Shown here: positions 1,075 through 62,008 of the stretch, piece by piece
How positions within the stretch are numbered: the first letter of the stretch is position 1
Layout: each line of letters opens with the position of its first letter
Source of the DNA: Lichina pygmaea
Taxonomy: Eukaryota > Ascomycota > Lichinomycetes > Lichinales > Lichinaceae
DNA length: 64,000 nt
NCBI GenBank assembly: GCA_963422465.1
Contig: OY730169.1
Location: forward strand, 3,844,001-3,908,000
Direction: 5' to 3'
Notes under the pieces: generated by a model
What the model saw: the letters and a program-made list of their open reading frames with translations, nothing else
Database searches by the model: none
Told to the model about the DNA's origin: nothing
Program-made: the position numbers and the translations under genes

Positions 1075-4000
1075 TTACCCCGAAAGTCCCTGCTGGTTCT
1101 GCTGACCGAATGAGAGATGGCTGCTGCTCCATTCGTTGCTGCCAAACAGGTCGTCGATGTTGAAGCCCGGATGTTGCACGGCCGGGTTGCCTGCCGGAGC
1201 GACGTAGGCGCTACCGAACGCAGCACCTTCTGACGTCTGCTGGCCGACCGACATCGGCGCCGTCGGCGGCGGCACCTGGTTCTCTCCGAGGTAAGGCGGC
1301 AGAGGGTCGAAGAGCTGCACCTCGACGTTGTCGTAGGCGCTGTTGCCCCTCGGGTCCTGCATGAACATCTTGCCGTCCACGGCGGCGGCGCCGAGCGAAC
1401 ACTGCTGGTGCTGCTGATCCTCGAGGATGGTGATCGGATGGTTCGGATAGGCGAACGGGTCCGGGGACGGGAACATCATGGCGTTGAAGTTGAGAAAGTC
1501 GTTGACGTTGGGCTGCTGCTGCAGGAGGAACGCGTTCGTCGGTGGCTGCGAAGTCTTACTGATCGGGTCCGGCTGAGTGCCCGGAGCCGGATTCGCGGAC
1601 GAGTCGGACGAAGCTCCGTGCTCCTGCGCCAGTCCCGGAAAGGCAGCGTCGACAGAAGCGCCGAACGATGCTGGCTGGTCCTGCGCCAGCAGAGACATGG
1701 GCCGTTTCGGCCTGTTCCTCGCGGGACTGGGAAGGGCGCCTGCGAACGGCGCTGGAGACCGCGGCTCGTGCTTGACGCCCGACGAATCCGCCTTGATCAA
1801 GGGCGTCACCGGCTCGCTTGATCCAGGCGTCGTCACCCGCCGTTTCTTATTGCTGGCCGGCTCCCCGTCCCTGTCCTGCCGTAGCTGCTCCGGCAGCTGC
1901 CTGAAGAGCATCTGCAGGCCGAGTCAGTCTCGCGTCCAACAACGATGCACGCCGGTTTTCCTCTGCTGCGCGGTCGACCTCACTTACGGCTAGCGTGTGC
2001 GTGCATCGGTCCGCGGCCAGGCTCCGCTTCGAGAGACGCGCCAGCGTTTCTTTCCCCTCGTGAGCGTCCCGCAACACGTCCACCGAGGCGGGGTCGTCGA
2101 GATTCTCGAGCACGAAAAAGACCAGCGTTATGATGGAGAAGAAGGTGGTGTACATGACGAACCAGTAGGCGCCCATGAGCAAGCCCTTCCCCTTCATCTG
2201 CGTCGTGATGTGGATGAGGTTGCGACACACGCCGACGCAGGCGACGGCACATGCGTACGCGCGCCGATCGGTCTTTTTGGCGCTGCCGCTCCTCGACACG
2301 TAATGCAGAAAGGGTCGGTAGAGCATCATCTGGAGGAAGCTGTACGTCAACCGCAGAAGGTGCTGGATCCTGGACGAAACGGAGGACGCGTGCTTAGTCA
2401 ATAATCGTCATCATCATCATCATCGTCGTCGTCATCGTGGTCGTCATCGTCGTTGTCATCACCATCGCCATCATAATAGCCCAGCAACGTCGAAAAAGGG
2501 GTAGACGATCACTAACCTGGAATGTTCGGGCGACGAGCTCTCGCACGCTCGCAGACACTCCGGCAGGCCGTCCATCCACGCCTGTAGATCCTGTTCGATC
2601 TCTCTCACGCGGGCGTAGCTGACCACGTACGATCGCTTGTCCGGCCCGTCTCGGCGCTTCTCAAAGCCCTTGATCGGATAGATGTACTTGATCACCTTGG
2701 TCAAGACCCTAACCAGATCGTTCTGAGCGTTGGCACCGGCCACCAAGGATACCTTACCTTCCGGCATCGGCAGGATGCCGTGCTCGGTGATGTACTCGTC
2801 GTCGACCTCGGCCGGGTACTCCTGGTCGATGTCCTTGTCGCTGAGCGACTTAGGCAGGCCGAGCATGGCGCCGACGTACATGTCCAGCTTGCGGATGACC
2901 CAGAAGACCTGCTTGCGGGTCTCGCGTTCGATCGGGTTGAAATCCCTCGCGACGGAGCGGTGGAGGCCCATCCGGAGGGCGGACCGCAGGGCGATGCCGA
3001 TGTAGGAGTAACACGTCGTCAACCGAGCCGACGACTGCAGAAACAGGATCATGAAGACGAGCGCCTGCAACGAAGGAAGGTCGCGGCAATCGGTGATGTC
3101 GATCATCTGACGACAGGCGTCGTAGTACTTGAACCTATGGGCGTCCCAGAACGCAGCTCTCTCAACATCGAGGGTTCGACAAGCAGCCCCGGATTCTCTC
3201 CGCCACCTCCCCCTTTCAATATGGGGGGGAAGGGGGGGGGGGGGGGTTGGGGTTGAAGTGATAGAGCTCACCCTTGAGTGATCGCGCACACGTAGCCAGC
3301 CTTCTCCAGATCGCTATGCTCGTCCTTGGCGAAGAGACAGCCGAAGGAGAGGACGACGTACAACAACGGCAGGAACCGGTTCTCCTCGTCACCGTACGCG
3401 TCTGGATGTCGGCTGTATAGGCGGTCCATCATGGCGTAGAACGTTGGTTGGTGCACGAAGCGGATCAAGGTGCAACCGTCGTCCAAGGCGTTGGACACCA
3501 GCGTTCTGGCGACGGCCTTGGATGGCAGCAGCTCCAACGTGTGAGGGGCGGCGTCATCCGAGAACGGACCGGTCGGGGACTTGGGGGACGTGTGTATCTT
3601 CGGCATGCCGTCGGGCATGACGAAGGGCCCCGATCTGCTTTCTTCGCCGAACAGATCACCGTACTGCTTCCGCATGCGGCGCATGAAGCTGAGACCCGAG
3701 GAGTGTCCATGGTAGTCCAGATAGCCTCGGTCGTCAATGTCCAGCTGACCTGTCGTCTCGACCATGGACTCCATCAGCGCGTCCGTGTCGGGATCGTCTC
3801 CCGAGCCGGCGCTCCTGTCCTCGCCGCCGCGGTTGTCAGCTGGCCGGAGTCGAGTCTCCGGTCTCGAGCGCAACCGGGCGACATCCAAGGTGGGATCGTC
3901 GAGGTCGACATGAGGCAGCGCGGACCGGATGATGGCTTCAGCCCGGTGGAGGCGGCCTTCCAGCTCCTCGATGTGCTGCTGCGGGGCTGGGTTCCGCCTT

Positions 4001-4346
4001 CGATTGGACGGCTGATCATACGTGCAATCTACGGTGCAAGCAGACGAGTCAGGTTCGAGGCCGTAGCGCTGTAGCCGGCAGGATGGGCCACGCCGCGTCT
4101 CACGTCTCACGTCTCACCGTAGCTGTAGACGGTACAATGGGTGCAGGGCCGTTTGCCATCGCACTTGATCTTCTTCCGCCGACACTCATCGCACGCACGG
4201 GCCACTCGCCTTCGTTTCTGGGCCGAGGACGCTACATGGGGCGAGGTGGACGAAGGGTCCGTCGTCGCTGACGCCGGGCGCGGCCGTCCTGGCGACACGT
4301 CAAGGTCGTCTTGGCCCGACTCCGACGAAGACATGTTCTCGTCCAT
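1075..4346 (-). CDS. Zn2Cys6 fungal-specific transcription factor (5 exons, 948 aa)
   Basis: A nuclear DNA-binding regulator of the Gal4 class. Five exons (4346-4118, 4028-3272, 3158-2517, 2369-1988, 1911-1075) join in frame through GT..AG introns of 89, 113, 147 and 76 nt. The binuclear zinc cluster is complete: Cys52, 55, 62, 68, 71 and 78 with spacing CX2CX6CX5CX2CX6C. The sixth Cys is supplied by exon 2, followed by a basic linker and a short coiled coil (about residues 90-115). The middle region contains the Fungal_trans signature '[20 protein letters not shown]' in exon 3. The C-terminus is Pro/Gln/Asn-rich and could be an activation region. The ATG at 4346 was chosen because it is the first in-frame ATG before the cluster. 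Intron 2 contains a 15-bp G run and intron 3 a CAT/CGT microsatellite. Target genes cannot be deduced; a role in sugar or polysaccharide use is only a guess from the family. Confidence 0.88.
2401..2475. repeat. CAT/CGT-rich microsatellite in an intron
   Basis: An imperfect trinucleotide tract (cat, cgt and gtc units) fills much of intron 3 of the Zn2Cys6 gene. It lies between the donor at 2516 and the acceptor at 2370. Confidence 0.85.
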
Positions 4347-5449
4347 CCGGCTCCCGACGCTGACCTCGATCAGCTCTCCCGTGAGTTGATTGATCGCCGA
4401 GCTTCGCCAAGACGTGATGACGAATCGGTTGCGGCCCAGTCGCAAGCACGTGCATACGAGTAGAACCTTTACCGAACGACAGCCTTACTTCCACATTCAT
4501 AGCTACGTATCTCTCCTTTCTTTCCTATCTTACACATCGGAACTCCCCCTGTTCTAGCCTATTCAGAAGTATCACTCCTCTTTGTGCCGTGTGACTAGCC
4601 TTTTTCTCGTGATAGCTGTGTTCTATAAAGTCCGAGCAATTCCCCGTGTCAGCTACCCACTCACTCAGCTTACTCTGTGGCCAAGGATTCAATATTCCCA
4701 GGGCTTCGTACTGATCAAGTCGATACTTACTCTTTGAAGTACAACACCATCCAAGATGTTCTAGCCAGTCTGAACTCCAGTTCAAGTCCCAACCTGGATC
4801 TCAGCCTAGATCCCAGCCCAGATCGAAGGTGTCTCAGTTTGGATTCCAGTCTAATTTCAAAGCCAGATTTGAGGTTCCTTGGACGTGATCCCAGATATCC
4901 TACCTTGATATCGGCATTGATATCTTAAAGTGGATCCAAAAATGTCCCAAACTAGACCCAAAAACAGTGGTACAAATCTTTTTTTTAGATTACAATACTG
5001 GAATACTGCACCGGAGTATGTTTTTGTTAATTTCTGCTATGATCATGGTGAAAAGATAGTGATCAACCTCCTACATATGAGTCACTTGTGGTGATAACAT
5101 GTACAAAGAGAAAAAAGATTGTTGAGAGTATGTATAAGCCAGTACTGCTAGCATTCAAATTGTTACTTTATGTTGATTTTGTGTTCTTTACAACAGGTCC
5201 GAAAATCTCTGTCAAGTCTACTAGATCAAGCTCTGAGTGTTGGGCAGTTACTGGAAGACGATGAGTAAGCGAATTTTATCTCCTAGAAATATTTTACCCT
5301 CTGTCACGATTACTGTTACCATATCCGTCACTATCACTGCCAGTACCATCATCATCATCGGCATCGTGGTTGTCATTGTTGTCAGTGTCACTGTCGTTAT
5401 CATCATCATCATCATCCTCATTATTGTCATCACCCTCGTCATCACAAAC
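4347..5449. other. Intergenic upstream of the Zn2Cys6 gene
   Basis: The first 200 bp or so should hold the promoter of the minus-strand transcription factor. The stretch 4750-4930 carries degenerate repeats of a 'cccagatc / cctagatc' type, and from about 4920 the DNA is clearly AT-richer than the flanking genes. A trinucleotide-rich tract (cat, gtt and gtc units) occupies about 5340-5445. A splice-donor-like 'gtaagcga' follows an ATG at about 5271, but no exon could be assembled with confidence. Confidence 0.5.
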
Positions 5450-10984: not shown

Positions 10985-13535
10985 CGGCGGTTCTCCCGGC
11001 TCCCTTCACTCCTCCACAGCCCTAGGACCCCTTTGAGCAGGCGTATGGCAGACGGTGTTGGCAACGATCGGCCTTGGTATGTACTTGTCAGCCCATCTCG
11101 ACGTCGGTCAAGAAGTGAGGAGTTGACGTCTTCCAAAAGTTCGCGTCAGTGAAACAGCGACATGCCCTGACCCTGGCTCCTCTATCTCCCCAATCTCCCC
11201 ATCACCCCGTCTGCCCCCATGTTCCCCGTCCCTTCATCTGGCCGTCTCCCCAGTTCATCTTCACCTCATGCCATCATCCGCGCATCTCAGCAACACCCAC
11301 CCCTATCTATCCTCACCACTCAACTACCCCTTACACTAGCATATGGTCTCTCTTGCTTCTAGCCATCATGATCGGCCACGTCCGCCACTTTCTGGGCCCA
11401 CGCTCACCTTGCCTTCCCCTCTTCGAGCCCGTCTTTGGTTCCGTCAGCTGTCTCTTCGTTGTCTGTTGCCGGAAGAAACCAAAGAAAGGGAGACAGGCTT
11501 CTAGGGGTGTGATTCTTTCATTCACTTCTCCGGCCAATTTTCAGGTCTATTGTTCTCGACGACGACGACGGCAACGACGACGACGGCAACGACGGCGGTG
11601 GTGGAAGGCTAGAGAATGACGGCGACAAAAGAAATACCCGGCGTCATGAAATGAACGCAACGAGCCAACCCCCCCCCCCCCCCCCCCCCCTCCCCCCTCA
11701 AGTTCCCTGCCTTCTCCCAAAAAAGCACGTGTTTTTCATCTCTCGTGGAAGTAAACAGACAGGAAAAACAATGGAAGGAACATGAAACAAGTTGAACAGG
11801 CTGGAATTGGACACGTGCACATGTGGACTGACAGTATGAATGACGCTAGAAGAATGGGGCCATGGTCAGACACTCTGTCTCTCTCTTTTCTTTCCTCACT
11901 TTCTTCTTGGTGGCTGTCGTACCTAGTTGTTCTCTTGCGTGTGTTGTGGTGTAAGTTATCCTTTGGCTTGCCTTGTCCCACATTCGCGAGTGGTCATGCA
12001 TGTAGCTACAGCGACAGCGGCGACGGCTACAGTACGACGACGATGGGCTACGGTTCATTACAACTATAGTCAATACCTCAGGCATTTCTACTTTAGCGGC
12101 GCTCTTCTCTTGGCTTTTCCTTCTTTCGTTCTTTCTTCCGTCTGTCTTTTTCTTTCTCTATCGCCTTGTCTATGTGCAGTAGCATCCAGCGGTTGGAGTA
12201 GCCAGATTAGTCAGATGAGCCTGATAGCCAAATTGGCCTGGGTGGCTAGATATCTCCCCTTGTTCATCAAACGACGACGTTCCTCACTCCTCTTCTGTTC
12301 CCTCCTGTCCCCCCCCTGTTCTTTCTTGTCTTCTTACTCGTTGTTGACCGCTCGACTGTGGCTGTAGGCGTGGGCGTGGTCGTGGGCATGGACACGGGCA
12401 TGAGTGGGTGTTGTCCAGTCAGCCCTGTCTGACTTTCTATCTTCTCTCTGGGTTCTAGGTGTGTGGTACAGTACTTGGTTTGACTTGGCTTCGTTAGCAC
12501 AGCAGCATCCTGCTTCATCCTATCCTGTCTTGTCTTATGTTGTCTTGCCTTTACCTTATCTTGGTATACGTATTTCCGCACTTTCCCTCCAACCCAATTC
12601 CACTCTCACGGCTCTTTGTCCAAACAACTCTACTCACCAACATTTCTGCTTCTCCACACAAATGATGTGAGTCATCATCTTGACATGAATAGATAGATGG
12701 GATGCTAGGGCTGCTCCATTGTACACACAACTGCATGGATATGTTTTCCTTCTTGTGTTCTGGGTGTGTAGATGGACGTACGGATGTGCGTACTGTGCAG
12801 TGGTGACTACTGCAAGAGCTTGGGAGTCTTGTTTGTATGGGTCTGATATAATATGGTCTCCACGTGCTGTCTACAGTACGTTGCTAGAGTAGTTGGAGTG
12901 GCAGCAGCTATCATCTAACCACCAATCATCCGTCAACCATCCATCAACAACCATTTACCACCCCCACCCCACCCCCCCCCCCCCCCCCCCCCGGCCCCCA
13001 AGCTCCAATAGAGACAACAAGATCCAGATGAAAGACAGAATCGCAGCCTGTACCCCTGATTCCTTCTTGTTTTGTTTCTGTGCCTATGATGGTGCTTGGA
13101 CAACAGGCTTCTTACCTCTACAACCTAGTGGGGTTACATCCCAGTGTGATCTTACTGGCAAGAGGCTACTGATTGAGATGGTAGGTGTGATGGTAAGTCT
13201 TCTGAGGGATTGGTCATGATGGTGGACATTGTACGTACGGTCGGTTTTGGGTGAAGAAGAAAGAGCCCTTCGTGGGGCCGGGAAAGGAGTCGACGGGTGA
13301 ATGAAGGAAAATAACCTCGCCGGAGAGGGAAAAGAAGACATTGTTGGAAAAGAATACAGGCCGCTCGTTGGAAAGGAAGGACAGTACTCAGACGAGGAAA
13401 GAGCAGTAACGCGTCGAATGTTGTGAAGGAGAGTGGCTGGGATAGGGGTTCATCTCGTCTGCTTCGTCTAGTGTGGCACGTAGAGGCTGCAGATTGGGTC
13501 TTGCTGGAGGTAGGGAGGGTTTTGCCACGCTAGAG
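10985..13535. other. Long pyrimidine-rich intergenic region
   Basis: About 2.5 kb without a supportable gene. From about 11160 to 12670 the plus strand is strongly C/T-rich, with pure C runs at 11669-11690 (22 bp) and 12972-12992 (21 bp). The left part is presumably the 3' end of the forkhead transcript. The open frames in it are low-complexity and lack domains. Confidence 0.6.
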
Positions 13536-17929: not shown

Positions 17930-18390
17930 TCGGGCTGCACGCCGGCTTGTCGAAGGCCCGGAGTAGCTTCCTGACATAGGTCCGCACAGCCGCGGAGCGC
18001 AATGGGAAACAGCTAAGCACGTAGTTGTCGACTGCCCACGCCTTCTGCGAGCACGTCGCAGCATGTACGCTGCGGCAACCACTATTGACTACCAGGTGAT
18101 GACTTCGCGACCACGGCCCGCCGCCGCTCTCACAGCGTGGATCCTTCGCCACGGTGTTCTTCCCCAGTTCTCCTGGGCTCAGGAGCAGCTGGAAGCTGGC
18201 TGCTAGCCAGTCACCCCCCCCCCCCCCCCCCATGTTCTACAGTGACTCGGCAGGATAGCGCTGGTCAGGCGCTGCAGGGAGAGGGTTTTTACTCTTTTGA
18301 GTTTTCCTAGCCTAGCTCTATAGTTGACCCAGCACAGCCTAGTTACACTAGTGCTAGAATGGTGTAGGCATTTAATCAATCAATCAACGT
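17930..18390 (+). mobile_element. 5'-truncated Tad-like LINE fragment with 10-bp target duplication
   Basis: The element is bounded by identical copies of 'aatcatgaca' at 17920-17929 and 18391-18400. It ends in an (aatc)n-type tail, the usual non-LTR retrotransposon signature. Inside, translated pieces match the C-terminal end of a Tad-type ORF2: a start like 'LHAGLSKARSS', then 'WETAKHVVVDCPRLLRARRS' and 'TTIDYQVMTS'. Relative to the related copy at 47.5 kb, about 80 bp before the ETAKH motif are missing. The copy is non-coding. A C run (18214-18231) lies in it at the same place where the 47.5-kb copy has nearby low-complexity sequence. Confidence 0.8.
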
Positions 18391-23236: not shown

Positions 23237-26200
23237 GACGACGGCGCTCGCCGAAGAGAAGGCACAGCGAACGCTTGGGTGGCGCGATCGAGGACGATAC
23301 CTGTGGGATGAAGGAGGACGGTCCGGAGCTGACCAACCTGCCTTTCTCGCCGGGGGGCCGTGGTTGCCGATCTCCTATCTTGTTTCTCTTTCTTTCTCTC
23401 TTTATACCAGGGGGGGGGGGGGGCGGACGTCTGCGAGGGTCTATCAGGATGATGTCGACGACGACGAACATGAAGGGTCGGAGGAGGATACACTCGGCAC
23501 GAGCGGAGGATGGCTTGGTCTGACAAGCACCGCCCGCCACGTTTCTCCTTTCGACCGACGCTCTGTCTCTTCCATTTCTTGCTCCTCCAGCACGATTGCT
23601 TGGCTGCCGCTACCTCGGCGTAGCATGTACAGTAACAAAGATGGCAGGCGGACCGGTACGGGCGGTAGACATTTGCCTGCGGTCCTGAATTTACTCTCAT
23701 ATCTTCTACTCTCTTTGGTCTGTTGAATTTGGCAAACCCTACTCTTACTCTCCCAGTCTGTATGATTTGCAATGCTACTGCCACTAGATAATTCTGTGCA
23801 GTCCAGTGTGCAAGACCTGAGCGCCTGGACGATGAGCCGAGTGCAGATGATTACATATAAAGTCACGTGATGGAAGCCTTTTCGTAGCTGCCTGGTGTGA
23901 TTAGCTTCTGACAGTGACGACACCGACAATGACAACGTTCCAGGACAACTTACGTATCGTACGCAAGTCAGCCCCGTTCCCGGTCGACACCGAGTCGACA
24001 AAGTTTTGTTGGCCATCGCAGTGTGTGCCAAGCAATCTCTTCTTACGTAAGACAGAGGTGCTTTGGTGCCTCGGACACAATTTCCGCTGAGAAAAACGCG
24101 ACTGTCAAAAGTACTGATTGTCTCTGATGATTCTTGTCGTCCTTGCGCGCAACAGGCACTGCGAACCCCTGCTACGTACACACGGTACAGTCTGCTACTG
24201 TACTGTGCGAGTAAGCTGTCGAGGGCTGAATAAGCCACGGATTCTGGCATTGCGGTCGATTTTGGCTTATCAGATCAAGATTGGCTTGGCTACATCAATG
24301 GAACTTTGCTTAGACGAGGCTACGCCTCGATATCGGACGCGGTTCGGAGCCGAGAACCTTATATCAACAGCTTCGGCCAGAATGCGATGATTTCGACATC
24401 CTGCTTTCTGGCTTTACGGTATGTCTGTACGCACTCGGAGTATGATATCTTTGTGCATGATTTTTGGTCCCTCTTACTTCCATGCCCCCTTCGCTTAGTA
24501 CAAATACTTCTAGTTTTGTGACACTCCCTAGAATAACTAAGTACTACAGTACTAAACTTTTGGGGTATCAGCCCACCGACAACCCAACTCCACACCACTC
24601 AGAGTCCCCACAGCGCCGAAAATGCCATGTATGACATCGAAAATAAGATCTGGCTGGATAGACCTAGAGCTAGGCATTGGATACGACTAGAAAAAAAACG
24701 CGACCGAAGAATGTAGGCTGTGTGATGCTACCAGGACTTATGAAGCTCATACCTTGCTTGACTTGAAGAGATACCTAGCTTTATATGGTGTGGCTCGGCA
24801 AAGTGCATGTACTGATTTATGCGGGGGGGCATGGAAATAAGCGGGGGGGCACCGAAGTAATCTACGTGCATAGTGGGGGGTACCAGAGTGATTGTCGGTA
24901 CTTCCGTACAATGATACCTGTGTAGATGCGAAGCCGATCTATTCATTTGTGCGCGATGGAAGCGCCTAAGTAGGGCTAGGCTAGCAGTCACGTGGGGTGT
25001 CACGTGACGTGGAAACCACACCTGCTACAAGTATGAGAGCTGCCCAACACGAAACCGCCCATCCTACTCCGTATATGTGCAACCATCATCCAGTCATCGG
25101 TGCAGGTGAGCTGGCACTTGGTTGATGCGGACCACAGCCGGAAATGTCTCAGTGCGAGTCTCTTGCCTGCTGAGGTGGCGCTACGAGGAGGTAGCTGAGC
25201 ATCAGTGCGGCGCTGAAAGATACTCTTGTTTAGAAGCTTGCGGTGACGATCACCTGTGTCAGAAGGCCCAACCAAAAGACTCGACAGCCCTGATCAGGTG
25301 ATCAGAACTGCCTTTGGCTGATTATATAAGGTTGCACGTGACAACCTGCATAGGCGAGCCTGCAAAGACCGACGAGCACGCCGTGCACGACGCTCATGAT
25401 GATACTGTACCGAACAGCGGCCGCATCATGACGACAATCTCAGACGGAGTTTGTTTCTCGGCTGGATACTTTGACGTTGCGTTGGAGTTACTCGGTGCTG
25501 GGATGATATTCTACAACCACGCGCGCTCTCAGCCTCCCAGCCGTCACACACAAAGATTCCTTGGCCCTGAGTACGGCATCGGTGTCGGACGAGAAGGCCG
25601 ATGGTCGATCGGGCTGAACGAGGCTTTGGGATGTTCTTCCCCGATGCGCTCAAAGTGCCTACTCCACTGCAGCGCTCGGAGGAACGGAAGCGTACGCCGC
25701 GTGAGTCCTCCGTCGTCCGGCTGGCCAGCAAGTCATGCGCGCTAAGCGAGTGGAGCTTTTAATAGGACTCCCAAGGATCTTGGCGAAAAGCAAATGTCCC
25801 TCCGCTCCACAATGAAAGACCTGCTCAAACAGGGGGACTGAGGCACAGAACCAGTACTCCCTCCGTTGGCCGAGGCTGCGTGGCCGACCACTGCCGGGAT
25901 GCACCGCTGGGGGCAGCGGGAAAGGACTACTGATACGTACCTCGTACGTATGGTACGCTTCTCAACTTGCGGCACAATGTCTTTGATCCGGGCCACTGCG
26001 GATGTTGTTCCAGTTTCCAACGGCAATCAGCCTTGCCATCCCAGGGTGCTCCGTACTCATGCCAATAACGCCACCGAATGCGACGTCGCTCGGCGCAAGT
26101 AGCCGATCGCATCACCTTGTGCTCGACTCTGAGATTCGGCCGCCTGCCAATGGCGACGACCAATGAGAGCCTGATAAGCTCAAGCTCGTCTGCACGACGG

Positions 26201-28440: not shown

Positions 28441-30373
28441 TCTGGATGGTCCTGTCGCGTCTTGTCACGGCACCGCTCCCGTTCAAGACGACCAAGGTCG
28501 TGCACACCCGTGTCTTGCACAGACGGCACTTGGCCTAAAGGAACGCGGACGGCGGGGGTGGATGAAGGAGGGGGGGGGGGGGGGGGGGGGGCGCAGATGG
28601 GAACCGGGACCGTGACGATGACTGCGGAGGGAGGAGGAGGACTCTTTTACGTTCTTTCTTGGCTTTGCTGGCATAGCACGACACTCTGCGCGTCTTGGGG
28701 GGCTCTGTTGTCTGGTACTCAAGAGGGGGGGGGATGGTACTTTCTCGAGACCCCGGGGAGGGCGATGATGAATAGAGGAGGCGTTGGCGCTGGCACCGGC
28801 GCTGGGAGCATCACCCACCGTCATGATCATGATCGTCATGTAACGTACTTTTAATGCAATCCGTGTCTTTCCACTGGTTCCCTCCTGGGTCTTTTGTCTC
28901 TTCTTCCTTCTGTCCTTCTGTCCTGTTTCTCTCTTGCTTCCTTTTTAGTTTCTTCCTTCCCATCTCATCTCTCTATTCCTTCCTTCCTTCCTTCCTTTCT
29001 TCCTTTCTTCGCCTCTTCCTTTCTTCACCTCTACTCCCCCCCCCCCCCCCCCCCCCCCCGGTCCCCTCCATCTCATTTGCTTTTCCCCTTTCCCCTTTTC
29101 ACTTATGCCTTGCCCACTTTTCAGCTTTTTTCCTTTCCATCCCTTGCCTCTCTACATATCACTTGGTATAATATGTTCCACGTGAGTTTTCATCAGACAT
29201 GACTTGAGTGACAAGAACATGACGTGACAGAACAGATCATGACAGAACAGATCATGACAGACCATGACGGAAGATAATATCATGTGACATGGCTTGGGCT
29301 TCATATAGCTACCAGTTTACTGCGTAACTTACGCCTTGGACCGGAACACTTTCAGACCAGAAGACAGGACATTTTTAAAGCATAGAAGGTGAGGCCAGAT
29401 TACCTGGCTGGGAGCAGAATACTTGCAAGACCGGGACAAGGAAATTGTCCCTGATTTGTTGGAACCATGTGAGATAAGACTCGATACGCCTTGTACAATT
29501 GACTTTAACCCCCACCCTGAACAGTACATATCCCAAACAACACAACGGTCCTAGCACCCCAACAGTACTATCAAATAACCCAGCAACCCGAGTCGTTCCA
29601 TCAGTCTCACGCCTCGAGACCTCAAAGTCAGGGACCCTTCGTGCAACAACGTCTTTGCGACACTTCCTTGTCAGGCCTCCTTGTCAGGTCTCCGTAGCCT
29701 CCTCGGACGAGAGCGGAGGATGTACGACAGAAAAATGTCCCCCCCCTCATCCACCAATGATACTATAAGCCGTATAAGATGAAGAAAGCACAAGGTGATG
29801 GAAAGGGGCACATGCGAAAGACAGAGGAACAGACAAAAGGCATGTCGTCGACGAGCGACGCGAGTGAGAACCCCCCCCCCCCCCCCCCAAACAAGAAAAC
29901 ATCATGAGTTTTTGAATATCAAACATCTCCAAAAGTCATCGGCTTGTCGTAGGAACTTTAGTCGCTCTCCGTCACCGCGTCGCCGCGTCACCACATCACC
30001 GCATCATCGCTGGGGGAGAGGGGAGGGGGGGGAGAGGAGAGGAGGAGAGGGGAGGGGAGGGGAGAGGTGCTTTGCTCTTGAGACGCTAACTGATCATGGA
30101 TGGAAGAAGGAAAAAGAAGCGAGAGGGGAAGGGGAAGGAAAGGAAAAGAAGGAAAGAGACGGAGGAGGGAGAGATATGAAAGTGATTAAGAGACGTCATG
30201 GAGATACAAGCGTCATTGCCGGGCCTGGCCCAGATTAAAAAGTGGTGATACAGACCAAAAGATGTGGAAGGCCGTCGAGGGCGGGGGAAAGGGCGTAGTG
30301 GATCGTAGCTGGTGGACGGGCTGAAGACCCCAACACGGAGAAGACGACCAGTCAAGGCACGCACAAAGCCGGC
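28311..30373. other. Intergenic between the lipase and MAPKK genes
   Basis: No supportable gene. Contents are low complexity: G22 (28570-28591), a C/T-rich block with ttcc repeats (28855-29035) ending in C24 (29036-29059), tandem 'agaacagatcatgac' units at about 29225-29260, C18 (29871-29888), and a purine-rich ggagg/gaag stretch (30010-30180). Confidence 0.6.
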
Positions 30374-32155
30374 TCAGTCATCCCAGTCCCACACCTCGCG
30401 AAGGAAATGCGCCATGTTGACCTTCTTGGTCTTGATCTCGACCATCCAGGGATGCTCGAGCATGCGCCAGGGCGATCCTCGCCGCGGAGGTTCCTTCTCG
30501 AGACTGTCGCATCGACGGACGTCAGTCGGCCAGCCGGTCGCGCATCGTGTCGTCGGCCCGCGGTGGAAACCCAGGGGGACGCCGAATCGCGAGAGAAGAC
30601 AACAGTAAAAGGGCACGCACCAGCAATCGATAAAGTACTTGAAGTTCTCGCTCCATCGGATGCCGTGCTCGGCTTCGTCCTTGAGCTTCGGAATCGGCTG
30701 CCGCACGATGTAGGTCAAGAGGTCGATGAGACCGGCGCGAGGCTGCATCTCGGTGCCGTCGGCCGGGAAGGGAAATCGGTGCTGGGCCACCTCGAGCAGG
30801 GTGACGCCCAGGGACCACACGTCCGACGTGATCGTGTACGACTGGCCCGTGATGCGTTCGGGCGCCATGTAGTACGACGTGCCGATGAAGGTGTTGGCGT
30901 CGCCTTTGGTGCCAAACTCGCCGCTCACGCCGAAGTCGCAGAGCTTGACCTGGCCGTTGCGGCACAGGAGGATGTTCGACGGCTTGATGTCTGTCGGGCT
31001 CGGTTCAGACGGGGAAAGGGGGGGGGGGGGGGAGGGGGCGAGCTGGTCCCAGCCGTGGCACCTTACCTCGATGGATGATCTTTCGACCGTGCAGGTACGT
31101 CAGGCCGTTCAGGACCCCGTCGGCAACCTTGCCGAGCACCTTCTCGCCCGTGCGGCCGCCGAGCTTCTTGACCTCGCGATAGATGCTGTCGAGCGAGCCG
31201 CCCTCGCAGAACTCCATCGCGATCGAGATGGTGCCGGTCGAGCTGTCGACGAAGGCGCCGTAGTAACGACAGATGTGGTCCGAGGCGCAGTCCTTGTTGT
31301 AGTGCAGCTCGCGCACGATCTGCTTCTTGACGTCCGGGTTCGGATCGGTCGTGATGACCTGGCCACGCCGTCAGCGACAGGGAGAGACGGACCGGGGGGG
31401 GGGGGCCGGACCCCGAGCCGGCCCCTCGCGGCCCGGAGCCAAGGGAAGGTCACCTTGAGGGCAAAGACGGTCTTGCCACCCTTCAACGAGCACCTCGTGA
31501 CGGCCCCGCCGGCGCCCTCTCCGAGGCTACCGAGCTCGACGATCCTCTTGTCGACGCTGACGGCCCTCCAGGTGTCGTCGTCCAGGTCTTCGACGTCCAG
31601 AGGCCGGCCCTTCTCGAGGCTGAGCTTTTCCAGATCCGGTAGGCCGGCGTCGTCCCGATCCATGCCGGATCCGCCGTCGCTGCCTCCCCGATCCGAGTAG
31701 GTCGAGCCGGCGGCGGAGGAAGGGTCGGACGCGCCTTGGGGCTGTCGGAGGCCCATGGCGAAGGAGAGGGCCGAGTACTGCGACGCCGCCGAGGTCGGGC
31801 CGCTGACGCGGCCGTCTCGACCGTCCAGCAAGGCCGAGCTGTCCGAGCGCACGTGGGCCATGTCACCGCCCAGGCTTCCGGGCTGCAGCGTCAAGGGCGG
31901 CGCCATCGGTCTGCCGTTCGGTGCCGGGCCCGGGTGCGGGGTCGTATGGCTCCCCATCGGCGTGGCCAGTCGGAGCTGCGGCAGCTGAGGTCTCGCGGGC
32001 GGGGCGTTCGACGACGACGCGTCGTTGGCAGCGTTCACGAGCGGCCTGCCGCTGGCCGTCGAGGGGATGGCGAGGCCCAAGCGTGGCGGTCGACCGCCGC
32101 CGGCGCCGCGGTTGCCCGGCATCGGCGGCCGCAGGAGCGGGGCTGGCGACGACAT
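30374..32155 (-). CDS. MKK1: MAP kinase kinase, Mkk1/Mkk2 cell-wall-integrity type (4 exons, 497 aa)
   Basis: A cytoplasmic dual-specificity kinase expected to phosphorylate the Slt2/MpkA-type MAPK in the Pkc1 wall-integrity cascade (family knowledge). Exons 32155-31454, 31358-31067, 30990-30621 and 30503-30374 join in frame. A roughly 190-residue disordered Ser/Pro/Gly N-terminus precedes the kinase domain. Visible motifs are the Gly loop '[12 protein letters not shown]', Lys234 (VFALK), the catalytic loop 'IIHRDIKPSN' (Asp332), DFG 350-352, the activation segment with Thr359 and Thr365, '[14 protein letters not shown]', and '[14 protein letters not shown]'. The C-terminal '[20 protein letters not shown]' matches the Mkk group better than Pbs2 or Ste7. 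Introns 1 and 2 carry G runs on the plus strand (poly-C on the sense strand). Confidence 0.93.
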
Positions 32156-32948
32156 GATCGCCGCTCGACCCGAGCTCGAATCACCAAGGGATCGGTGCCC
32201 GGGGCCTGGGAGAAGTCAGAACCTTGTCCTCGCCGACTCGGGACCGGGGGGGGGGGGGCGACGATGACGATGACGATGATACGGGGGGACGCTCACCGGT
32301 CGAGGGGTCGACCGAGGGTGTCACGAACGAATGTGGTCAGGCGGATGCCGGCTCCAACAAGGCCAGACCGATCCTGTCGGTCTAGAATCTCTCCCTCGCA
32401 CCTGTCCGAGGACCGTTGCACCCAAGCGAAGGACGACGACGAAAGGCTGCGGTGGGGCAGCGTTCCCGAGGGCACCGTAGGCTGGCGGTGGAGGGGCAGG
32501 GCTGGCAAGCGGTCGGGGGCTCCCCGGCAGTCGTCAACGACAGGCGTAACGGACAAGGCTCTCGACGACTTTCGTACCGGTGCAAGAGGCGATGTGGAAT
32601 ATCCTCACGTTCTCGTCCTGGGTTACGGGGCAGGTCTCTCTCCTTCGACGGGGGCAATTGGGAATCGAAGACCGAGGCCGATGGACCTGGCCGTGGCCGT
32701 GGGGCAGCTTTTATATCGAGAACGACTGGACTGTTCGAGACCGTGGTGGAACGGTCACCGTGGCCGCCGTAGAACCAGTCGTCGACGTCGGCTTCGGCGT
32801 CGTCGAGAGGCAGAGCGATGAAAATGAAAATATACAGGGTCCGCGATATCGGATGGTGGCACGGTAGCGGTAGGACGATATATAAAGATACGGAGCACGG
32901 CGATCTGTACGACGTCAAGGCTTGTGTTCCCTACTCCGCAAGAAGCAT

Positions 32949-35348: not shown

Positions 35349-37306
35349 CGATTGGCTATGGGGTCTTGGTCACCTTTCTGATGCTGGCTTGTTGGGAGTA
35401 TGGAAGCGCGGCAGACTACCTAGAAGACCGTCTCTTGCGGCTAGTGAGTTTGAGTTTCCCATCCTTCCTCTTTCCGTTCTCTTGCTTCTCGATCGGTACG
35501 GTAGTTGTCCCTTGCCACGGCGACAAGAGAACCGCTCTTTCCCGAACGGGAAAACACGGCTGACGAAGATATCAAGCCTACGGATCACTAGTGGGAGGCC
35601 CATGTCGGTGAACGTTTCCGCGAACAGGCAACGTCCGAGGGACGGTGTTGATTCTGGTGGCAAAAGTCGATACAGATGGCGAAGGGAAAACCGAACGAGG
35701 TCAACGAGGACACGCCGTCAGAGGGCAGTAACGCGAGAACGGGAGCCCAGGGATGGACCCATGGCTTTCAGTTGCCGAGACTGGACATCCTGGGCGATCT
35801 CGGCGGGACGCTGAAAGGGGCGTTCCGCCACCCGCCCGGCCGTGGGGGCGTACCTGGCAGGCCGGGCATGGGGTCCAGACAAGTCTTTCGTATGGGACGA
35901 TGAGCGCGTACCCTCGGGCGAACGTTTGCTGCAGCCTTTCTTGTCCATCCAAATTTTCTCTCGAAAATGTCTCTCGACCAAGTTCTTCTCTCACTCTGAG
36001 ATGTTTCCTTCGCCCGTTTTGAATCAGAGCCTGGTAAGACAACCGGGCAAGACAGCCGGGCAAGACAAACAGGCACGACAACCAAGCAAGACAAACAAGC
36101 ACAGTGAGGTAGCGCGTTATAATTCCAGCCAAGTCCACCACTCGAGCAAGATACCAGAGATGACTTTCACCCTGATCCTCTTCATTCTTGACGAGTCTCA
36201 TGCATGAGAACCTCCCTTGTTTTTCTCCCCCTACCCCCCTTCACAGAAGCCTGCGAGAGATAAGAGACGTGAGTGCGGTGAGTTATGAATCAAAGCAACG
36301 CTTCGTGACTGGCAAAAGATGGGTGGGTTGTAACGTGTGTCATTCCATACTTGTCCCTCTGACTTGTCCCGCAGACTAGTCCCTCAAACATATTTACAGC
36401 ATCGAGTCAGCATCAGAAGCCGGCAGAAGCTGGCACACAGCACTACAGTACGTAGAAGCAGGTACGGTATGGCGCCGGGCAGAAGTTGAAGCAGTGACGG
36501 AAGTAGGAGCGGTCACGGAAGTAGGGGGGGGGGGGGGGGTAGACACAGGAATCAGGAGTCGGTACAGAAGCAGGGAGTAGGAAAAAGATAGGGAGAGACT
36601 GGAGTAGGATAGTTAAAACAAGAGGACCGAATAGGTAGTAGCAACCAACGAACAGACCCAGCAAGAAAAGAGTGGAGGGTAGCGGGACGAGGAGACGTCG
36701 CAACAGGATTGGAGCAAGCGTGACGACAAGACTGGAGCAGGCGTGACGACAAGACTGGAGCAGGCCTGACGAGATGACTGGAGCGGCATCGCAAGACGAC
36801 TGGAGCGGCATGACAAGAGGACTAGACCAGCATTAGGTGCAGGCACAGCAAAGAGACTGGGGGTAGGAGCAGGTACCACAAGAACACTGGGGCAGCACCA
36901 GCGAACTGGGAGCAGCACTAGAGACTGGAGCAGTATTAAAGACCGGAGCAGCATTGGAGATTGGAGCAGCGCCAGCGATTGGAGCAGCACTAGAGACTGG
37001 AGACTGGAGCGGTGCTTGGAGCAGACGTAGCATAGAGCATACAGCCGCGGGGCTTTTGCCCCCTCCTTCCACCTCGAGAAGCAAGTGCCGCGAGAAGCAA
37101 GAGCCGCGAGACTACTCCGCGAACCCCCATAGTCGAGCGTGCTTCTCAGAAATCTCTCGCACGCCATTGATATGTCACGATGGCATATGACGTCTCGACA
37201 TGACGTCTCGACATGACACGATGGCATACAACGTCTTGATATGATGTCATTTCATATATCGTCTGAAGTGGCACAATATCATATGCCGTCTTGATACGAC
37301 GTTCTA
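35349..37306. other. Repeat-bearing intergenic region
   Basis: No supportable gene. It contains short tandem arrays: 'caagaca' units at about 36035-36105, units of about 23 bp around 'gactggagcaggcgtgacga' at 36706-36825, 'gagcagcactagagactg' units at 36908-37020, and a gacgtctcgacat-type array at 37180-37300 abutting the sideroflexin stop. A G16 tract lies at 36524-36539. Confidence 0.6.
36700..37025. repeat. Two adjacent minisatellites sharing a 'gactggagc' core
   Basis: The left array has units of about 23 bp (gactggagcaggcgtgacga...). The right array has units of about 18 bp (gagcagcactagagactg). Both share the core 'actggagc', suggesting divergence from one ancestral unit. Confidence 0.75.
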
Positions 37307-38683
37307 TCAGATGCCCCTGTTGAACTCCACCTCGTCGACCCGGCTGTGTTCGGTCCAGAAGCGCTGCTCGAGCCTGCGCGTGCTGACCCGTTGTCTCTGC
37401 GGGAAGGCGGCGAGGGCGAGAGGCAGCGCGAAGACGGACGTCGTGAGGATGAGACCTGTCGTCGACAAAAAAAAAAAGTCTTTTTTCAGCCGCGTCAAAG
37501 AAATCATAAGAGACATGGGAAAAGAAAACCCAAAATCAATCCAAGAATTGAAGGCAGGAAAGGACCGCACCGAGATTCACTGGCAGTGTCAAGCTCGGCC
37601 TGCGCTTGAGCCAGCCCGTCCGTTGCAGCCGGAAGAGCACCAACGGCGGGATCACCATGATCGGGGTCGCGTTCAGGACGCGGCTCAGCGCCGTCTCGCC
37701 GACGGCCAACGTCGCCGCGCGTCTGCTCTTCCCGAGGCTCGTCGTGCCGGCGACCTGGCCGCTCTCCTCCTGGCCCTCGCCCTCGCCATCGCCCTCGGAT
37801 GGCCGGACACGGGCCACGACGGGGTAGACGTCGATGCCCTCGCGGATCTCGTCGCTCCTCATCAAGAACACGTTGAGGGCGCTGGCCGACGCGACGGCCG
37901 CGAACGGAACCAGCCTCGCGAGCACGAGCCGCGCACCGGGCGAGACCCTCTTCAGCCGTGGCACGACGGCGCCGAGCCCGACGGCGACGGAGCACGACGC
38001 CGTGACGGCCAGCAGGTACGATCTGACCACGCTCGAGGTCGACAGGGACGTGGACTTGTTGGCGTTGGCGCTGTTTATCGCGACGTTGAGCGACTGGTTC
38101 GCGATCTGCCACAGCAGCGTGCCGGCAGTCTAGCCTGAGCGTGTCAGCGACCGTCTCGGGTCCGGTCTCGTCAGGCGCAACACGTACGCCGAGCCCGGGT
38201 GTCAACATGCCGGCCGTGACCACGAGGTTGGACAAGACGAAGCACGACATGCGAAAGGGCAGGAAGACGGGCTTCCCGGTATCTGCGCTCACGGGGGGGG
38301 GGGGAAGGTCTAAACGCGCCGCTCTCGACAGCCGGATCACGGACGTTCGGTACCGGGATGCAAGGTGGAATCGACCACCTTCTTGGCCCGCCACAGCTCG
38401 GGCGTCATCGAGCGAATCTCTCCGGCCTCGTATCGCGCGAGCAGGGACGTGGCATCTTCCAGGGCCGCTCGTCGGACGAAGAGGGTCCTACTGCGCGTCA
38501 GACACGTGTACGCTCGTGGAGTGTTCTGGCACGCTGGCATCGAGGCAGCGGCAAGCCGAGCGCCTGCGCTGCCACTCACCGCGGGTCTGATATGTCGGCG
38601 GCGTGCCTGACCCGGCCCCGGTAGGTGCTCAGGTCGTATCTCGACGCGGGCGGCTCGCGGCCAGTGGGCGAGGAAGCTGACAT
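37307..38683 (-). CDS. FSF1: Sideroflexin family mitochondrial transporter (5 exons, 346 aa)
   Basis: An inner-mitochondrial-membrane carrier of the sideroflexin (SFXN/Fsf1) family. Animal members import serine for one-carbon metabolism; the fungal substrate is less certain. Exons 38683-38580, 38487-38354, 38282-38188, 38129-37571 and 37455-37307 join in frame. Family landmarks are 'RYDLSTYRGRVRHAADISDP' at the N-terminus, 'MTPELWRAKKVVDSTLHPDT', 'GKPVFLPFRMSCFVLSNLVV', 'NQSLNVAIN' (residues 122-130), 'FLMRSDEIREGIDV', and a C-terminal hydrophobic segment 'SVFALPLALAAFPQ'. A Gly/Glu-rich insertion (GDGEGEGQEESG) lies in a loop. Exon 2 has tandem acceptors (cagtag) that would add or omit one Arg. 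Intron 2 contains a G12 run and intron 4 an 11-nt poly-T acceptor tract on the sense strand. The symbol follows the yeast homologue. Confidence 0.92.
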
Positions 38684-40570: not shown

Positions 40571-40830
40571 CTTGGAGTACGCTGGTATGTCTTGTTCGTC
40601 GGTTTGGAAGGGGGCAAGGAGGAGCGGATGAGCTTTATTAAAGAGTGATACTAGTTGGAATAGATCGAGCACACAAAAGAGTGGAAGACCGAAGTCGGAG
40701 AGTGTTTGGCAAATGCAGCTTGCGTAGAGGGATGAGGGGAGAAGAAGGGGGGAGGGAGACGTCGGGGACGGAGTGCAGGGATTTTATAGCGCAGGGGGGG
40801 GGGGGGGGGGGGCGCACTCCACACCGCTCC

Positions 40831-40864
<34 letters not shown>

Positions 40865-47480: not shown

Positions 47481-48075
47481 GGGTGGCTGCAAGCCAGACA
47501 AGATGCCACACAGAAAGGACATGCTCCGCCTACACGCCGGCCTACCGAAGGCGCACAGCAGCCTCCTCACACAGATCTGAACAGGCAAGATAGGCCTGGC
47601 GGCGTTCCTGCACAAGCACCGGGTCCCCGGCTTTGAGTCACCAGTCTGCAGCTGTGGGTGGCAATAAGAGACTGCAAAGCATGTGATTTTTAATTACCCC
47701 CGCTTTACTAGTGAGCGCCAGGCACTGTGCAGCACCACCACCACCACTGACTTCCAGGTGCTAACCACTGACCCTCGGGCAGCAGCCACCCTGACAGTGT
47801 AGTTCCTTTGTCGGAACATCCTCCCCTAGTTCTCCTGAGCCCTGGACCAACTCTAGTCTGGCTGCTCTTAGCTACTTTCTTGTTCTACAGTATCTTAGCA
47901 GGAGGGCGCCTGCATAGGGGCTGCAGAGGGGGGGGGGGGGGGGGGGGTTTGCCCTAAGGCTAGGTGCAGGCTACCTAACCCAGAGGCTTCCGTCTGTCCT
48001 TACCAGTTTTACAGATAACCCAGCATAATCTAGCTAGCTAGATTTAGAATGGTGTAGGAATTCAATACAATACAA
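47481..48075 (+). mobile_element. Decayed 3' end of a GC-rich Tad-like LINE
   Basis: Translated plus-strand pieces show the ORF2 C-terminus: 'LHAGLPKAHSSLLTQI', 'FLHKHRVPGFESPVCSCGWQ' and 'ETAKHVIFNYPRF' (the usual CxCG...ETxxH...CP zinc region with a lost Cys). The frame has several in-frame stops. The noncoding tail has the same 'tagaatggtgtaggaattcaat' ending as the copy at 18.3 kb and finishes in (aatac)n. A G20 run (47928-47947) lies within it. The 5' limit and target duplication are not clear. Confidence 0.78.
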
Positions 48076-49282
48076 TTACCACTACTATGATTTTGTGATC
48101 AGGCCAGTCTCCAAAGTGGAGTGTTCACTGGTTGGATTAGCAGACTTGGTGAAGCCTGTGGGGGTTTGCCGGGGCTAGACTCAAGCTCCTCGGCCGGCTG
48201 GAGGCTCACGACTTCTGGATGCTGTCATCCCTTCAGCACACCAACACCTAATCCAAACTGAGTATTGCTACCAACGGAGCTTGCTATAAGTGCTAGGACG
48301 GAGGTTGGCAATAGTGAATCAATTCTTAGAACTACTTGCTGAAACATGGCTATATATGCCAGTGAGAAGGGTCACGTGCATACACATGTGATCATCACCG
48401 ATCTGGCAGCTGAGGATCACGTGAAACGAAAAGGTATAGACGGGCCAGAGTTCAATATCACGTGACTTGATACTCGCTGACCTAGACACCTCGTAGTGGT
48501 CACGGTAGTATTCTCCACAACGCAGACAAGCACCAAAAAAAAAATACCCATGACAATAAGCTATCTTTGTTGGCCAGGACAACACCTCCAGCGAATCAGT
48601 TCCTCCCCACGGTCAGTGAAAGGGAAGAGGTGTTCGGAGATGGGAAGTAGACTAGTCAAATAAGCAACTTCTGCAGTGCTGACAGACGCCACACCTACAC
48701 CTCCTGCCTATTGCTGTACTAGCACGGTTAGGTCATCTACAGTACAGTACGTATGTACCGGATGTCAGCATTGCAGGTACACCAGATCTATCTCGAGTAC
48801 CGTATGTACGCGAGATAAAAAAAAGTGCGAGAAGCATCGTCAAGGACGGACGTAATACTGTCCCCAGGATGTCGGGCCACAGGTTGTATGTACGAGGCAT
48901 ACCCATATAACGTCTGACGGGGGGGGCGCCACAGAAGAGGCTTGAGCAAGCAAAGCGGGCGCCTCACCGCAGAGACGTGTCATTCGCAGTCGTCTTTCAG
49001 GCCAGAAAATATCATAAAGAATACAACACGTTGATGTCGTGCAGAATCGAACCGACAACTATGACGTCAACACATCCCTACCCCAAAATAAACCCCCACA
49101 AAAATTACAGGCGTGCGCCTGCTAAACCCTCACACTCGTAGGAACCCCAGTGCAAGCAACCTGGGCGTCTATGGTTCCTAACGTGATGTTGAGTTTGGCC
49201 AGACCCCTTTACCATAACCGACACCCACTCAGGTTTCAGGCGGCACACAGCGGACAGTCACCTCTCCCTCTGTTGATATTTT

Positions 49283-49315
<33 letters not shown>

Positions 49316-50561
49316 CCGGGGGAGATGACCGTCTTTACTGGGAGGTTGGGAGAAGTACGCAGCTCCTCCCAATTAAGCCACAAAGGGCCTATCCTGTTTT
49401 CCCACACTTGAAAGGAATTGAGGTGCGAGAATATATATTGTAATGTGGGGGAGGGAGCTGGGCGCAGCATGTGGTGTTGGGGCGTACAGCCCCAGCAGCA
49501 GTAGGGCAAGACGCATGGAGTTTTCCGTCAGACTACTTGTACGGTAGCGTCTGATCTAGATGGGTTTCACCATAATTACTGTTTCCATGACCGTGATGAC
49601 TTATCCGGGATGGCATACTAGACCTCGAGCGTCGGGTCTGCGAATGCTTCGTCACCGCTTTCCTTGACAGAAGAGGCAGAGAGCTGTGGATGGAACCAAG
49701 TACAGACGCACTGTAGATGTTCAGGTGTAGGGTTCTCATGCTTGCGTGCCTTTGGCGTGGTACATTTTCGATCGGCGCAGGATGCTGAAGGATTGGCTAT
49801 GTAGCCTTTAATACTGGAGGGGCAATGGAGTTGGAGAGCGAGGGAGAGCATTCCAAGACGAGAAATATGGATGAGGTAGGAGATGGAGCAGCATGCAGGG
49901 CTCTCTGGCACGGTCATCATCATCATCATCATCATCATGGCGGATCGATGCAACTTCTCATCAACGTAAAGCCTGGGAATAGGGCGCTGCTAGTGGAAAT
50001 GGCAATTAGATTAGCGCAAAGAACTAGACGTAGGATGGGGTCCTATCCGTTTGGCCAGTATCGAAAGCCAGTCCTAGATTTGTATCGGAGGGCATCCCTG
50101 AACATGAATGCTTCTCCGAATATACCGCCTGGTGCCAGCAACAAACAGATACAAAATCAAATACAATATATACAGCAAGAAGAACAGACCGAGTAGAATG
50201 TATACGACAACAAGAAAGGAGTCGCCCGACGTATGTGAAAGGTTCTGAGCCATGTTGCTGAGGTTCGATGATGATGCCGTTGGACACATCATGGAACAGA
50301 AAGTATGGAGAACAAAGAGGATGCTGAAGGGAGGTCAACCCGTGGAGTGGGTGATCGTTGTGCGAAGGCGGGACTACCGCTCGCCGCCGATCAGCGTCAT
50401 TCGTGTAACGCAGCAACCTCCATCAACGCCGCGGCGGTTCCCGACGAAAGACCGGAGGTCTACGCCGACCGCGAGCCGAGAAAGAAAGTCCCCGAGAGCA
50501 ATTTTCCCCGCCGAGGCACCCCCGCGGAGAGGGGCTGTGTTGGGGGGGGGGGGGGGGGGGC
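48076..50561. other. Gene-poor region
   Basis: No supportable gene. Contents: three CACGTG-containing sites at 48370-48470, GTAC clusters at 48738-48810, a G29 tract (49285-49313), a (CAT)8 microsatellite (49915-49938), and G19 (50542-50560) that stops 1 bp before the next gene's stop codon. Confidence 0.55.
49285..49313. repeat. Poly(G) tract, 29 bp
   Basis: A pure G run in intergenic DNA. Confidence 0.95.
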
Positions 50562-61271: not shown

Positions 61272-61973
61272 TACGGCCGCGAACATCTCCGCTTATGCTC
61301 CAGTATCTGCTTCTCTTTCTTGTCGCCACGGTCATGTCTAACGCTTCGGAAACGTCTCCGCCCATGCCGCTATCCTGTTGCGATCCTTCTCGTTCTTGCC
61401 CCATCATCCCATCGCTATCTTAGAGCCATCTTGTCATCTACCCCGGTGATCCTCTACCGCACCATTGCATCTCTCTATCCATGTGTCCAGCGTTGTCGGC
61501 GGCGGTTGCGGGTCGGAATACCCCTGGTTCACTAGGTGGCACGGTAGACTGGCGTTCTCTCTGCTTGCTATCCCCACTCTCTCACAAGAAGGGGCGTATG
61601 ATCACTGATTGCTGTAGCGTGTGGGTGGAGCGTGTTTCGCCGCCGGTTGTTCTTCTACCTACGCTTTCTTCTTCCCCCCTCCCGTCTGTGGTTGACGGTC
61701 TGTTTCACAGCGGCGACCGCCGGCTCTGCAAGCTGCAACATAAGCGCCATTGTACAACGTCAAGAAATTGCTTTCTGATCATCCTCTCTCGTATCCACAT
61801 CGTCATCGTGGTCTGCTTAGCATGTTGCATCTTGAAGTGAGCCTTTACTCGCCATCGTTCAAAGGAAACCTTTCACCCAGCGTTAACCGTGTGCTTCTGC
61901 TGCCCCTTCCCCTTCCTCTTCTCATCAGAAAGCATCTACACAGAACTGCTTAAGGTGAGATGTGGGAGGGGAA

Positions 61974-62008
<35 letters not shown>

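What the first reader, a model, noticed from the sequence alone, without database searches (positions are those of the whole stretch)
3232..62008. About twenty pure poly(G)/poly(C) tracts of 12-35 bp in 64 kb
Runs seen on the plus strand: G 3232-3246, C 11669-11690, C 12972-12992, C 18214-18231, G 23410-23423, G 28570-28591, C 29036-29059, C 29871-29888, G 31018-31032, G 31394-31405, G 32247-32258, G 36524-36539, G 38293-38304, G 40794-40812, C 40834-40864, G 47928-47947, G 49285-49313, G 50542-50560, G 61974-62008. Comparable A/T runs do not exceed about 11. Such G:C runs are rare in most genomes. They avoid coding exons and sit in introns, next to stop codons or in flanks, which suggests tolerance or a generating process (slippage, quadruplex) particular to this genome.
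Basis: seen in the sequence. Interest (0 to 1): 0.7.

Follow-up and report, generated by a model that had tools for sequence, protein, structure and literature searches.

The report
Fungus genome riddled with poly-G tracts
This fungal-looking genome carries well over a thousand long runs of pure G or C, which seem to grow in place from short G-rich stretches, at about ten times the density reported for the worm C. elegans, while long A/T runs are rare.

Summary
In detail: 19 pure G/C runs of 12-35 bp in 64 kb and no A/T run of 12 or more. It is genome-wide: 1,849 G/C runs of >=14 against 149 A/T runs of >=14 in 32.47 Mb; fewer than four such G/C runs are expected by extrapolating short runs. 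Runs of >=18 number 1,322, 40.7 per Mb against about 4 per Mb in C. elegans (PMC2211496). The strongest new evidence is a dispersed repeat: at one site 27 of 31 copies read hold G runs of 2-7, four hold pure runs of 20-22, on perhaps two or three branches of a weakly supported tree; at a second site one copy has C24 where 28 have C2-C8. So tracts grow in situ from short seeds. Eight tracts read as lying in introns whose joined exons leave an open frame. Best explanation: G:C-biased replication slippage, tolerated in non-coding DNA. MSH2, MSH3 and MSH6 are present; no FANCJ/DOG-1-type helicase was found (provisional). The biased step is unknown, the species unidentified, and no raw reads were available.

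The parts
3232..3246 (+). G15; reads as an intron of a minus-strand regulator-like gene (C15 in the transcript); of three acceptors tried two keep the frame
11669..11690 (+). C22, intergenic by my coding model
12972..12992 (+). C21, intergenic by my coding model
18214..18231 (+). C18 inside a diverged copy of the dispersed repeat, at a different site from the 47928 tract
23410..23423 (+). G14, about 180 bp past a plus-strand coding segment
28570..28591 (+). G22, about 230 bp from a coding segment
29036..29059 (+). C24, intergenic by my coding model
29871..29888 (+). C18, intergenic by my coding model
31018..31032 (+). G15 in a 76-nt intron of a minus-strand MAP kinase kinase gene; splicing restores HRDIKPSN
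31394..31405 (+). G12 in a 95-nt intron of the same gene
32246..32258 (+). G13 upstream of the likely start codon of the same gene; an in-frame stop lies between
36524..36539 (+). G16 between coding segments, in a stretch rich in tandem repeats
38293..38304 (+). G12 in a 71-nt intron of a minus-strand gene; splicing restores HPDTGKPVFLPFRMS (sideroflexin-like by recall)
40794..40812 (+). G19, first arm of an inverted pair with the next tract
40834..40864 (+). C31, second arm, 21 bp from the G19
47700..48110 (+). dispersed repeat copy used as query: 44 matches including itself, 40 of 152 candidates scored
47928..47947 (+). G20 inside that copy; most other copies read have short G runs here
49285..49313 (+). 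G29, intergenic by my coding model
50542..50560 (+). G19, one base past the stop codon of a minus-strand ORF
61974..62008 (+). G35, longest tract of the window

Best explanation
The tracts are hypermutable G:C mononucleotide microsatellites that arise in place. A short seed of about 3-8 G or C slips during replication; once past about 10 bp it grows quickly to about 14-25 bp, where growth and shrinkage balance, giving the plateau and the fall towards 28. Purity is kept because slippage removes interruptions faster than point mutation adds them. Tracts persist where frame does not matter (introns, UTRs, intergenic DNA, dead repeats). Shown: genome-wide excess, excess over A/T, length shape, and seed against tract states at the same site of one repeat. 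Inferred: that the step is polymerase slippage, its direction and rate, and why this lineage favours G:C over A:T.
For: Counts and G:C to A:T ratio. Short G/C runs fall about 4-fold per base with one exception, but the cumulative counts keep 0.89 per base from 10 to 14, 0.92 from 14 to 18 and 0.80 from 18 to 28. In a dispersed repeat 27 of 31 copies read have G2-G7 at one site; W47928 and L065 carry G20 and G22 with an A left of the tract as in the short copies, L007 carries G21, and L066 G20 beside a local deletion; at a second site 28 of 29 copies with letters there have C2-C8 and one has C24. The tract copies do not form one clade on a weakly supported tree. Flanks are G-enriched at positions 2-6 on both sides (0.415 and 0.404, against 0.28-0.29 beyond 50 bp). 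In mismatch-repair-deficient yeast C/G homopolymers mutate about 7-fold faster than A/T and with a weaker deletion bias, on 38 events (PMC3755907, passages).
Against: No mutation rate, second strain or relative was available. At the repeat site nothing lies between G7 and G20, which may point to jumps rather than small steps. In that yeast study C/G runs still shorten more often than they lengthen (74% deletions), so plain slippage does not by itself build long tracts. MSH2, MSH3 and MSH6 show an ATPase and a mismatch-binding domain (the latter partial for MSH2; linked by position), so loss of mismatch repair is not seen. Slippage alone does not explain why A/T runs are so few.
Confidence: 0.68

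Rival explanations
1. Quadruplex-driven expansion: G4 structures on the template stall forks, and restart or template switching adds a block of G in one step, perhaps favoured by the lack of a FANCJ/DOG-1-type helicase.
For: No copies between G7 and G20 at the repeat site; excess for G:C over A:T; only two DEAD_2 helicase genes found, which I take for RAD3/XPD and CHL1; L066 has a local deletion beside its tract.
Against: In C. elegans loss of DOG-1/FANCJ deletes tracts rather than building them (PMC2211496). One PIF1 match is present. The missing FANCJ is an exon-wise search result, not proof. Genome-wide, runs of 10-17 do exist in number (2,900 of >=10 less 1,322 of >=18).
Confidence: 0.17
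2. Selected elements: poly(dG:dC) tracts are kept as nucleosome-excluding, splicing or termination signals, in place of the poly(dA:dT) used elsewhere.
For: Several tracts lie in introns, beside a stop codon or in a 5' leader; A/T runs are scarce.
Against: Both strands of the assembly are about equal (946 to 903); intron orientation is mixed (6 C-sense to 2 G-sense); tracts also sit in decayed repeats and far from coding segments. Conservation of position and enrichment at promoters were not tested.
Confidence: 0.07
3. Sequencing or assembly artefact: false or inflated poly-G.
For: No reads could be inspected; one 200-N run in the sample (L012) is a gap or a withheld stretch, so the assembly may not be gap-free; exact lengths of such runs are hard to sequence (recalled).
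Against: Both strands about equal; no tract shown inside an exon, two unresolved; the interruption beside the tract is kept in two repeat copies, while the copy nearest to W47928 (85% identical, L058) has no tract; C. elegans shows a similar pattern, checked there by PCR and sequencing for one tract per chromosome (PMC2211496).
Confidence: 0.06
4. The tracts are spread mainly by a transposable element that carries them.
For: Two window tracts and L007 lie in copies of one repeat family.
Against: 41 of 54 tracts had no flank match to another tract (flanks of short loci were cut at about 135 bases); 25 of 31 repeat copies have no run of 9 or more; tracts sit at different sites in different copies.
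Confidence: 0.02

Closest known systems
Poly-G/poly-C tracts of Caenorhabditis elegans and C. briggsae (Zhao, O'Neil and Rose 2007, PMC2211496; parts 1-3 of 5 read)
   Same: Pure tracts >=18 far above chance, on all chromosomes, in introns and between genes, almost none in exons (4 of 396), G more often on the non-coding strand of genes (84 to 47; here 6 to 2 in the eight introns).
   Different: About ten times denser here (40.7 against about 4 per Mb); no FANCJ/DOG-1 candidate found here (provisional); the introns read are 65-137 nt; higher G+C (55% in the sample against 36%).
Tandem repeat survey of 12 eukaryotes incl. Neurospora crassa and Daphnia pulex (PMC3152781; passages and section 17)
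   Same: Poly-C repeats exist in N. crassa (338.6) and peak in D. pulex (547.8) in that table's density units.
   Different: There poly-A outweighs poly-C in all but two genomes that have almost no mononucleotide repeats; here the 200 kb sample gives 1,245 bp/Mb for G/C against 120 for A/T in pure runs >=12 (methods differ).
[quoted passage not shown] passages)
   Same: Some fungi carry long G/C runs in genes (80 of 298 runs over 15), and in four named species only G/C runs of that length.
   Different: That study looked at coding sequence; most tracts here are outside my coding segments.

Membership tests
Caenorhabditis-type poly-G/poly-C tract genome | G/C runs >=18 far above chance, genome-wide | tested here: met
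Caenorhabditis-type poly-G/poly-C tract genome | tracts in introns and intergenic DNA, not exons | tested here: inconclusive
   8 introns read by hand; coding model 6 of 32 against 11.1 expected, two unresolved
Caenorhabditis-type poly-G/poly-C tract genome | excess of G on the non-coding strand in genes | tested here: inconclusive
   6 to 2 in the eight introns, a hand-picked set; L024 (unresolved) would be a third G-sense case
Caenorhabditis-type poly-G/poly-C tract genome | a DOG-1/FANCJ helicase guards the tracts | tested here: inconclusive
   DEAD_2 search: 6 exon matches from 7 candidates, in two genes. One matches a chain labelled CHL1, then yeast Rad3 and human XPD, FANCJ weakly; the other has no structure match and is CHL1-like by recalled motif. 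No third gene found
Mononucleotide microsatellite made by slippage | growth in place from a short seed, length variable between homologous sites | tested here: met
Mononucleotide microsatellite made by slippage | elevated +1/-1 length mutation | not testable with these tools
   no strains, reads or lines
Mismatch-repair-deficient mutator | loss of MSH2, MSH3 or MSH6 | tested here: not met
   ATPase domains without stops (named) and mismatch-binding matches about 2-3 kb away (MSH2 only positions 2-42 of 113); function and full frames not tested

The most novel reading that the evidence does not exclude
This lineage has a heritable, G:C-specific expansion process that turns 3-8 bp seeds into about 20 bp tracts in a single step or very fast, without a FANCJ-type helicase and with mismatch repair in place, so that poly(dG:dC) has replaced poly(dA:dT) as the main homopolymer of a eukaryotic genome.
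Probability: 0.2. Interest if true: 0.75.

Novelty: new variant of a known kind. Interest (0 to 1): 0.52.

Why it matters
The 2007 worm study left open why C. elegans holds hundreds of poly-G tracts. A compact genome with ten times the density, few long A/T runs and repeat copies with and without the tract makes tract birth, step size and the role of FANCJ-type helicases measurable. The 1,322 tracts of >=18 may also be hard to sequence and could serve as fast markers (inference).

Tried and rejected
Shared flanking motif or mobile carrier for all tracts: rejected, 41 of 54 tracts had no flank match. Simple loss of mismatch repair: not supported (MLH-type matches at three places; two further MutS matches on C1 and C7, the first with a stop inside, were not followed). 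General microsatellite excess: in the sample dinucleotide arrays >=14 bp are few (25 per Mb) and trinucleotide arrays >=18 bp moderate (140 per Mb), with no outside yardstick. Coding models: a first one penalised tracts (1 of 32 inside) and is not used as evidence for avoidance; the neutral one bridges short introns. Species: not established. One search by size listed two papers with 32.47 Mb, Rhinocladiella mackenziei (G+C 50.42%, 17 scaffolds) and Trichoderma reesei CBS999.97 (167 scaffolds); neither fits 8 contigs, nor the first the 55% G+C of the C1 sample. The 61-aa RAD3-like exon is about equally close to chain 8rev_A and to yeast Rad3. 'Filamentous ascomycete' is inference from gene types. 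tRNA and Rfam scans of the window were empty (the tRNA scan used the bacterial setting). Searches covered the wrong strand and found nothing; searches repeated them on the right one.
Full report
Observation. The 19 listed runs exist, 18 with the stated coordinates and one off by a base. The window has no G/C run of 10 or 11 bp, and A/T runs end at 11. With runs of >=9 masked, Markov models of order 1-5 predict about 0.02 or fewer G/C runs of >=12; unmasked, order 5 predicts about 14 because it is trained on the tracts. The genome holding the window has 32,469,017 bases in 8 contigs. Counts on both strands are 2,900 G/C runs of >=10, 1,849 of >=14, 1,322 of >=18, 143 of >=28, and 149 A/T runs of >=14. 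Extrapolating the fall of short runs gives fewer than four G/C runs of >=14. In a spaced 200 kb sample of contig C1 alone, G+C is 55%, with 12 G/C and no A/T runs of >=14. The window, with 16, is a hotspot against 3.6 at the genome mean; it came to me because it was striking. Tracts cluster: among the first 100 forward runs of >=10 on C1 (a capped list, 1.9 Mb), 18 of 99 gaps are under 1 kb against 5.0 in simulation, reached by none of 5,000.

Length shape. G/C runs in the sample fall about fourfold per added base up to 9, apart from one step from 6 to 7. Genome-wide, the cumulative count then falls by only 8-11% per base from 10 to 18 and by 20% per base from 18 to 28. That is a plateau with a soft ceiling, as expected from a balance of growth and shrinkage. 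In window plus sample, A/T runs fall away (2 of 12 bp, none longer), while there are 32 G/C runs of 12-35 bp (one search lists the spectrum). The A/T spectrum beyond 14 was not counted genome-wide.

A natural experiment. The tract at 47928-47947 lies in a dispersed repeat with 44 matches, itself included (40 of 152 candidates scored). I read 31 copies: two in the window, L007, and 28 pieces fetched. The pieces cover 29 of the other 43 matches and were picked because they span or adjoin the tract site; three extend beyond a match. Fourteen matches were not read, at least two of which span the site. At the tract site 27 copies have a longest G run of 2-7, often an interrupted GGGGAGG-type seed; W47928 has G20, L065 G22, L007 G21, and L066 G20 beside a local deletion (the count shows L066 as 11 because its cut starts inside the run). 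In W47928 and L065 an A stands just left of the tract as in the short copies, so the run right of it has grown. At a second site, of 29 copies with letters there, 28 have C2-C8 and L074 has C24 (L065 not covered, L064 empty). W18214 has a C18 at yet another place. On a tree without the long runs, L065 and L066 are sisters (0.87) and W47928 and L007 sit elsewhere with weak support. So tracts were probably born two or three times at one site and reached nearly the same length. No copy read lies between G7 and G20.

Place in genes. By hand, eight tracts read as introns with GT and AG ends; seven joins leave one frame open over the 120 bases shown, and the eighth (3232) does so with another acceptor (two acceptors fit). 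Four joins restore motifs that I recognise by recall: two in a MAP kinase kinase gene (HRDIKPSN; kinase), HPDTGKPVFLPFRMS of a sideroflexin-like protein, and LHFYTMNLAGATRMVLEDLGLV of a methylenetetrahydrofolate-reductase-like protein. The longest tract seen is a G48 in an intron (L048). Six of the eight are C in the transcript and two are G, the same lean as 84 to 47 in C. elegans, but too few and hand-picked. The tract at 50542-50560 begins one base after a stop codon. My coding model cannot see short introns: with tracts neutral it puts 6 of 32 inside coding against 11.1 expected, with 108 of 264 runs of 5 and 30 of 107 runs of 6-8 for comparison. Two of the six (L024, L027) stay unresolved.

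Repair genes. Exon-wise searches find ATPase domains of MSH2, MSH3 and MSH6 (named) with mismatch-binding matches about 2-3 kb upstream, partial for MSH2, a further MutS-type gene, two more MutS places not followed, one with a stop inside, three MLH-type matches and one PIF1. DEAD_2 matches fall in two genes only. One matches best a chain labelled CHL1 (8rev_A), then yeast Rad3 and human XPD, and I take it for RAD3/XPD; the other has no structure match and I take it for CHL1 by a recalled motif. A FANCJ/DOG-1-type gene was not found, which is provisional.

Comparison. C. elegans has 396 tracts of >=18 in 100 Mb, yeast 1 in 12 Mb, human 200 in 3.3 Gb (PMC2211496). Here it is 40.7 per Mb. In a 12-genome survey poly-A outweighs poly-C except in two genomes with almost no mononucleotide repeats; the highest poly-C density is 547.8 in Daphnia pulex, with 338.6 in Neurospora crassa (PMC3152781). 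The 200 kb sample here gives 1,245 bp/Mb for G/C and 120 for A/T (pure runs >=12, so methods differ). Yeast without mismatch repair changes C/G runs about seven times faster than A/T, with less deletion bias (74% against 93%), on 38 events; that bias is still towards loss (PMC3755907, passages). Four text searches listed no paper whose title or abstract start describes such a fungus; the library lacks most subscription journals, and only listings were seen except for the papers named.

Conclusion. The tracts are real at the level of the assembly, genome-wide, and grow in place. Slippage with a G:C bias is the best account (0.68); quadruplex-driven block expansion is the main rival (0.17).

Noticed in passing
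window 40794-40864; L035 645-777; L045 100-188: Closely spaced inverted pairs of tracts (G19/C31 21 bp apart in the window; C31/G26; G30/C18) that could form G:C hairpins; the L035 pair lies about 0.7 kb from the MSH2 ATPase match.
   Followed up: partly
L046 14-165: Two G tracts (23 and 31) in a tandem duplication whose flanks are identical over 98 bp, so tract length differs between young copies.
   Followed up: no
window 19481-20171: Repeat 98% identical over 691 bp to L013 8369-9059, with more diverged copies in other sample loci: probably a recently active mobile element.
   Followed up: no
L012 8842-9041: Run of 200 N, a gap or a withheld stretch, about 270 bp from a 23-bp tract.
   Followed up: no
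window 57756-57799: A perfect (TG)22 array, the only dinucleotide array of 14 bp or more in the window.
   Followed up: no
window 41000-58900: About 18 kb with few and mostly short coding segments in my model (the longest at 50581-51335), holding three tracts of 19-29 bp.
   Followed up: partly
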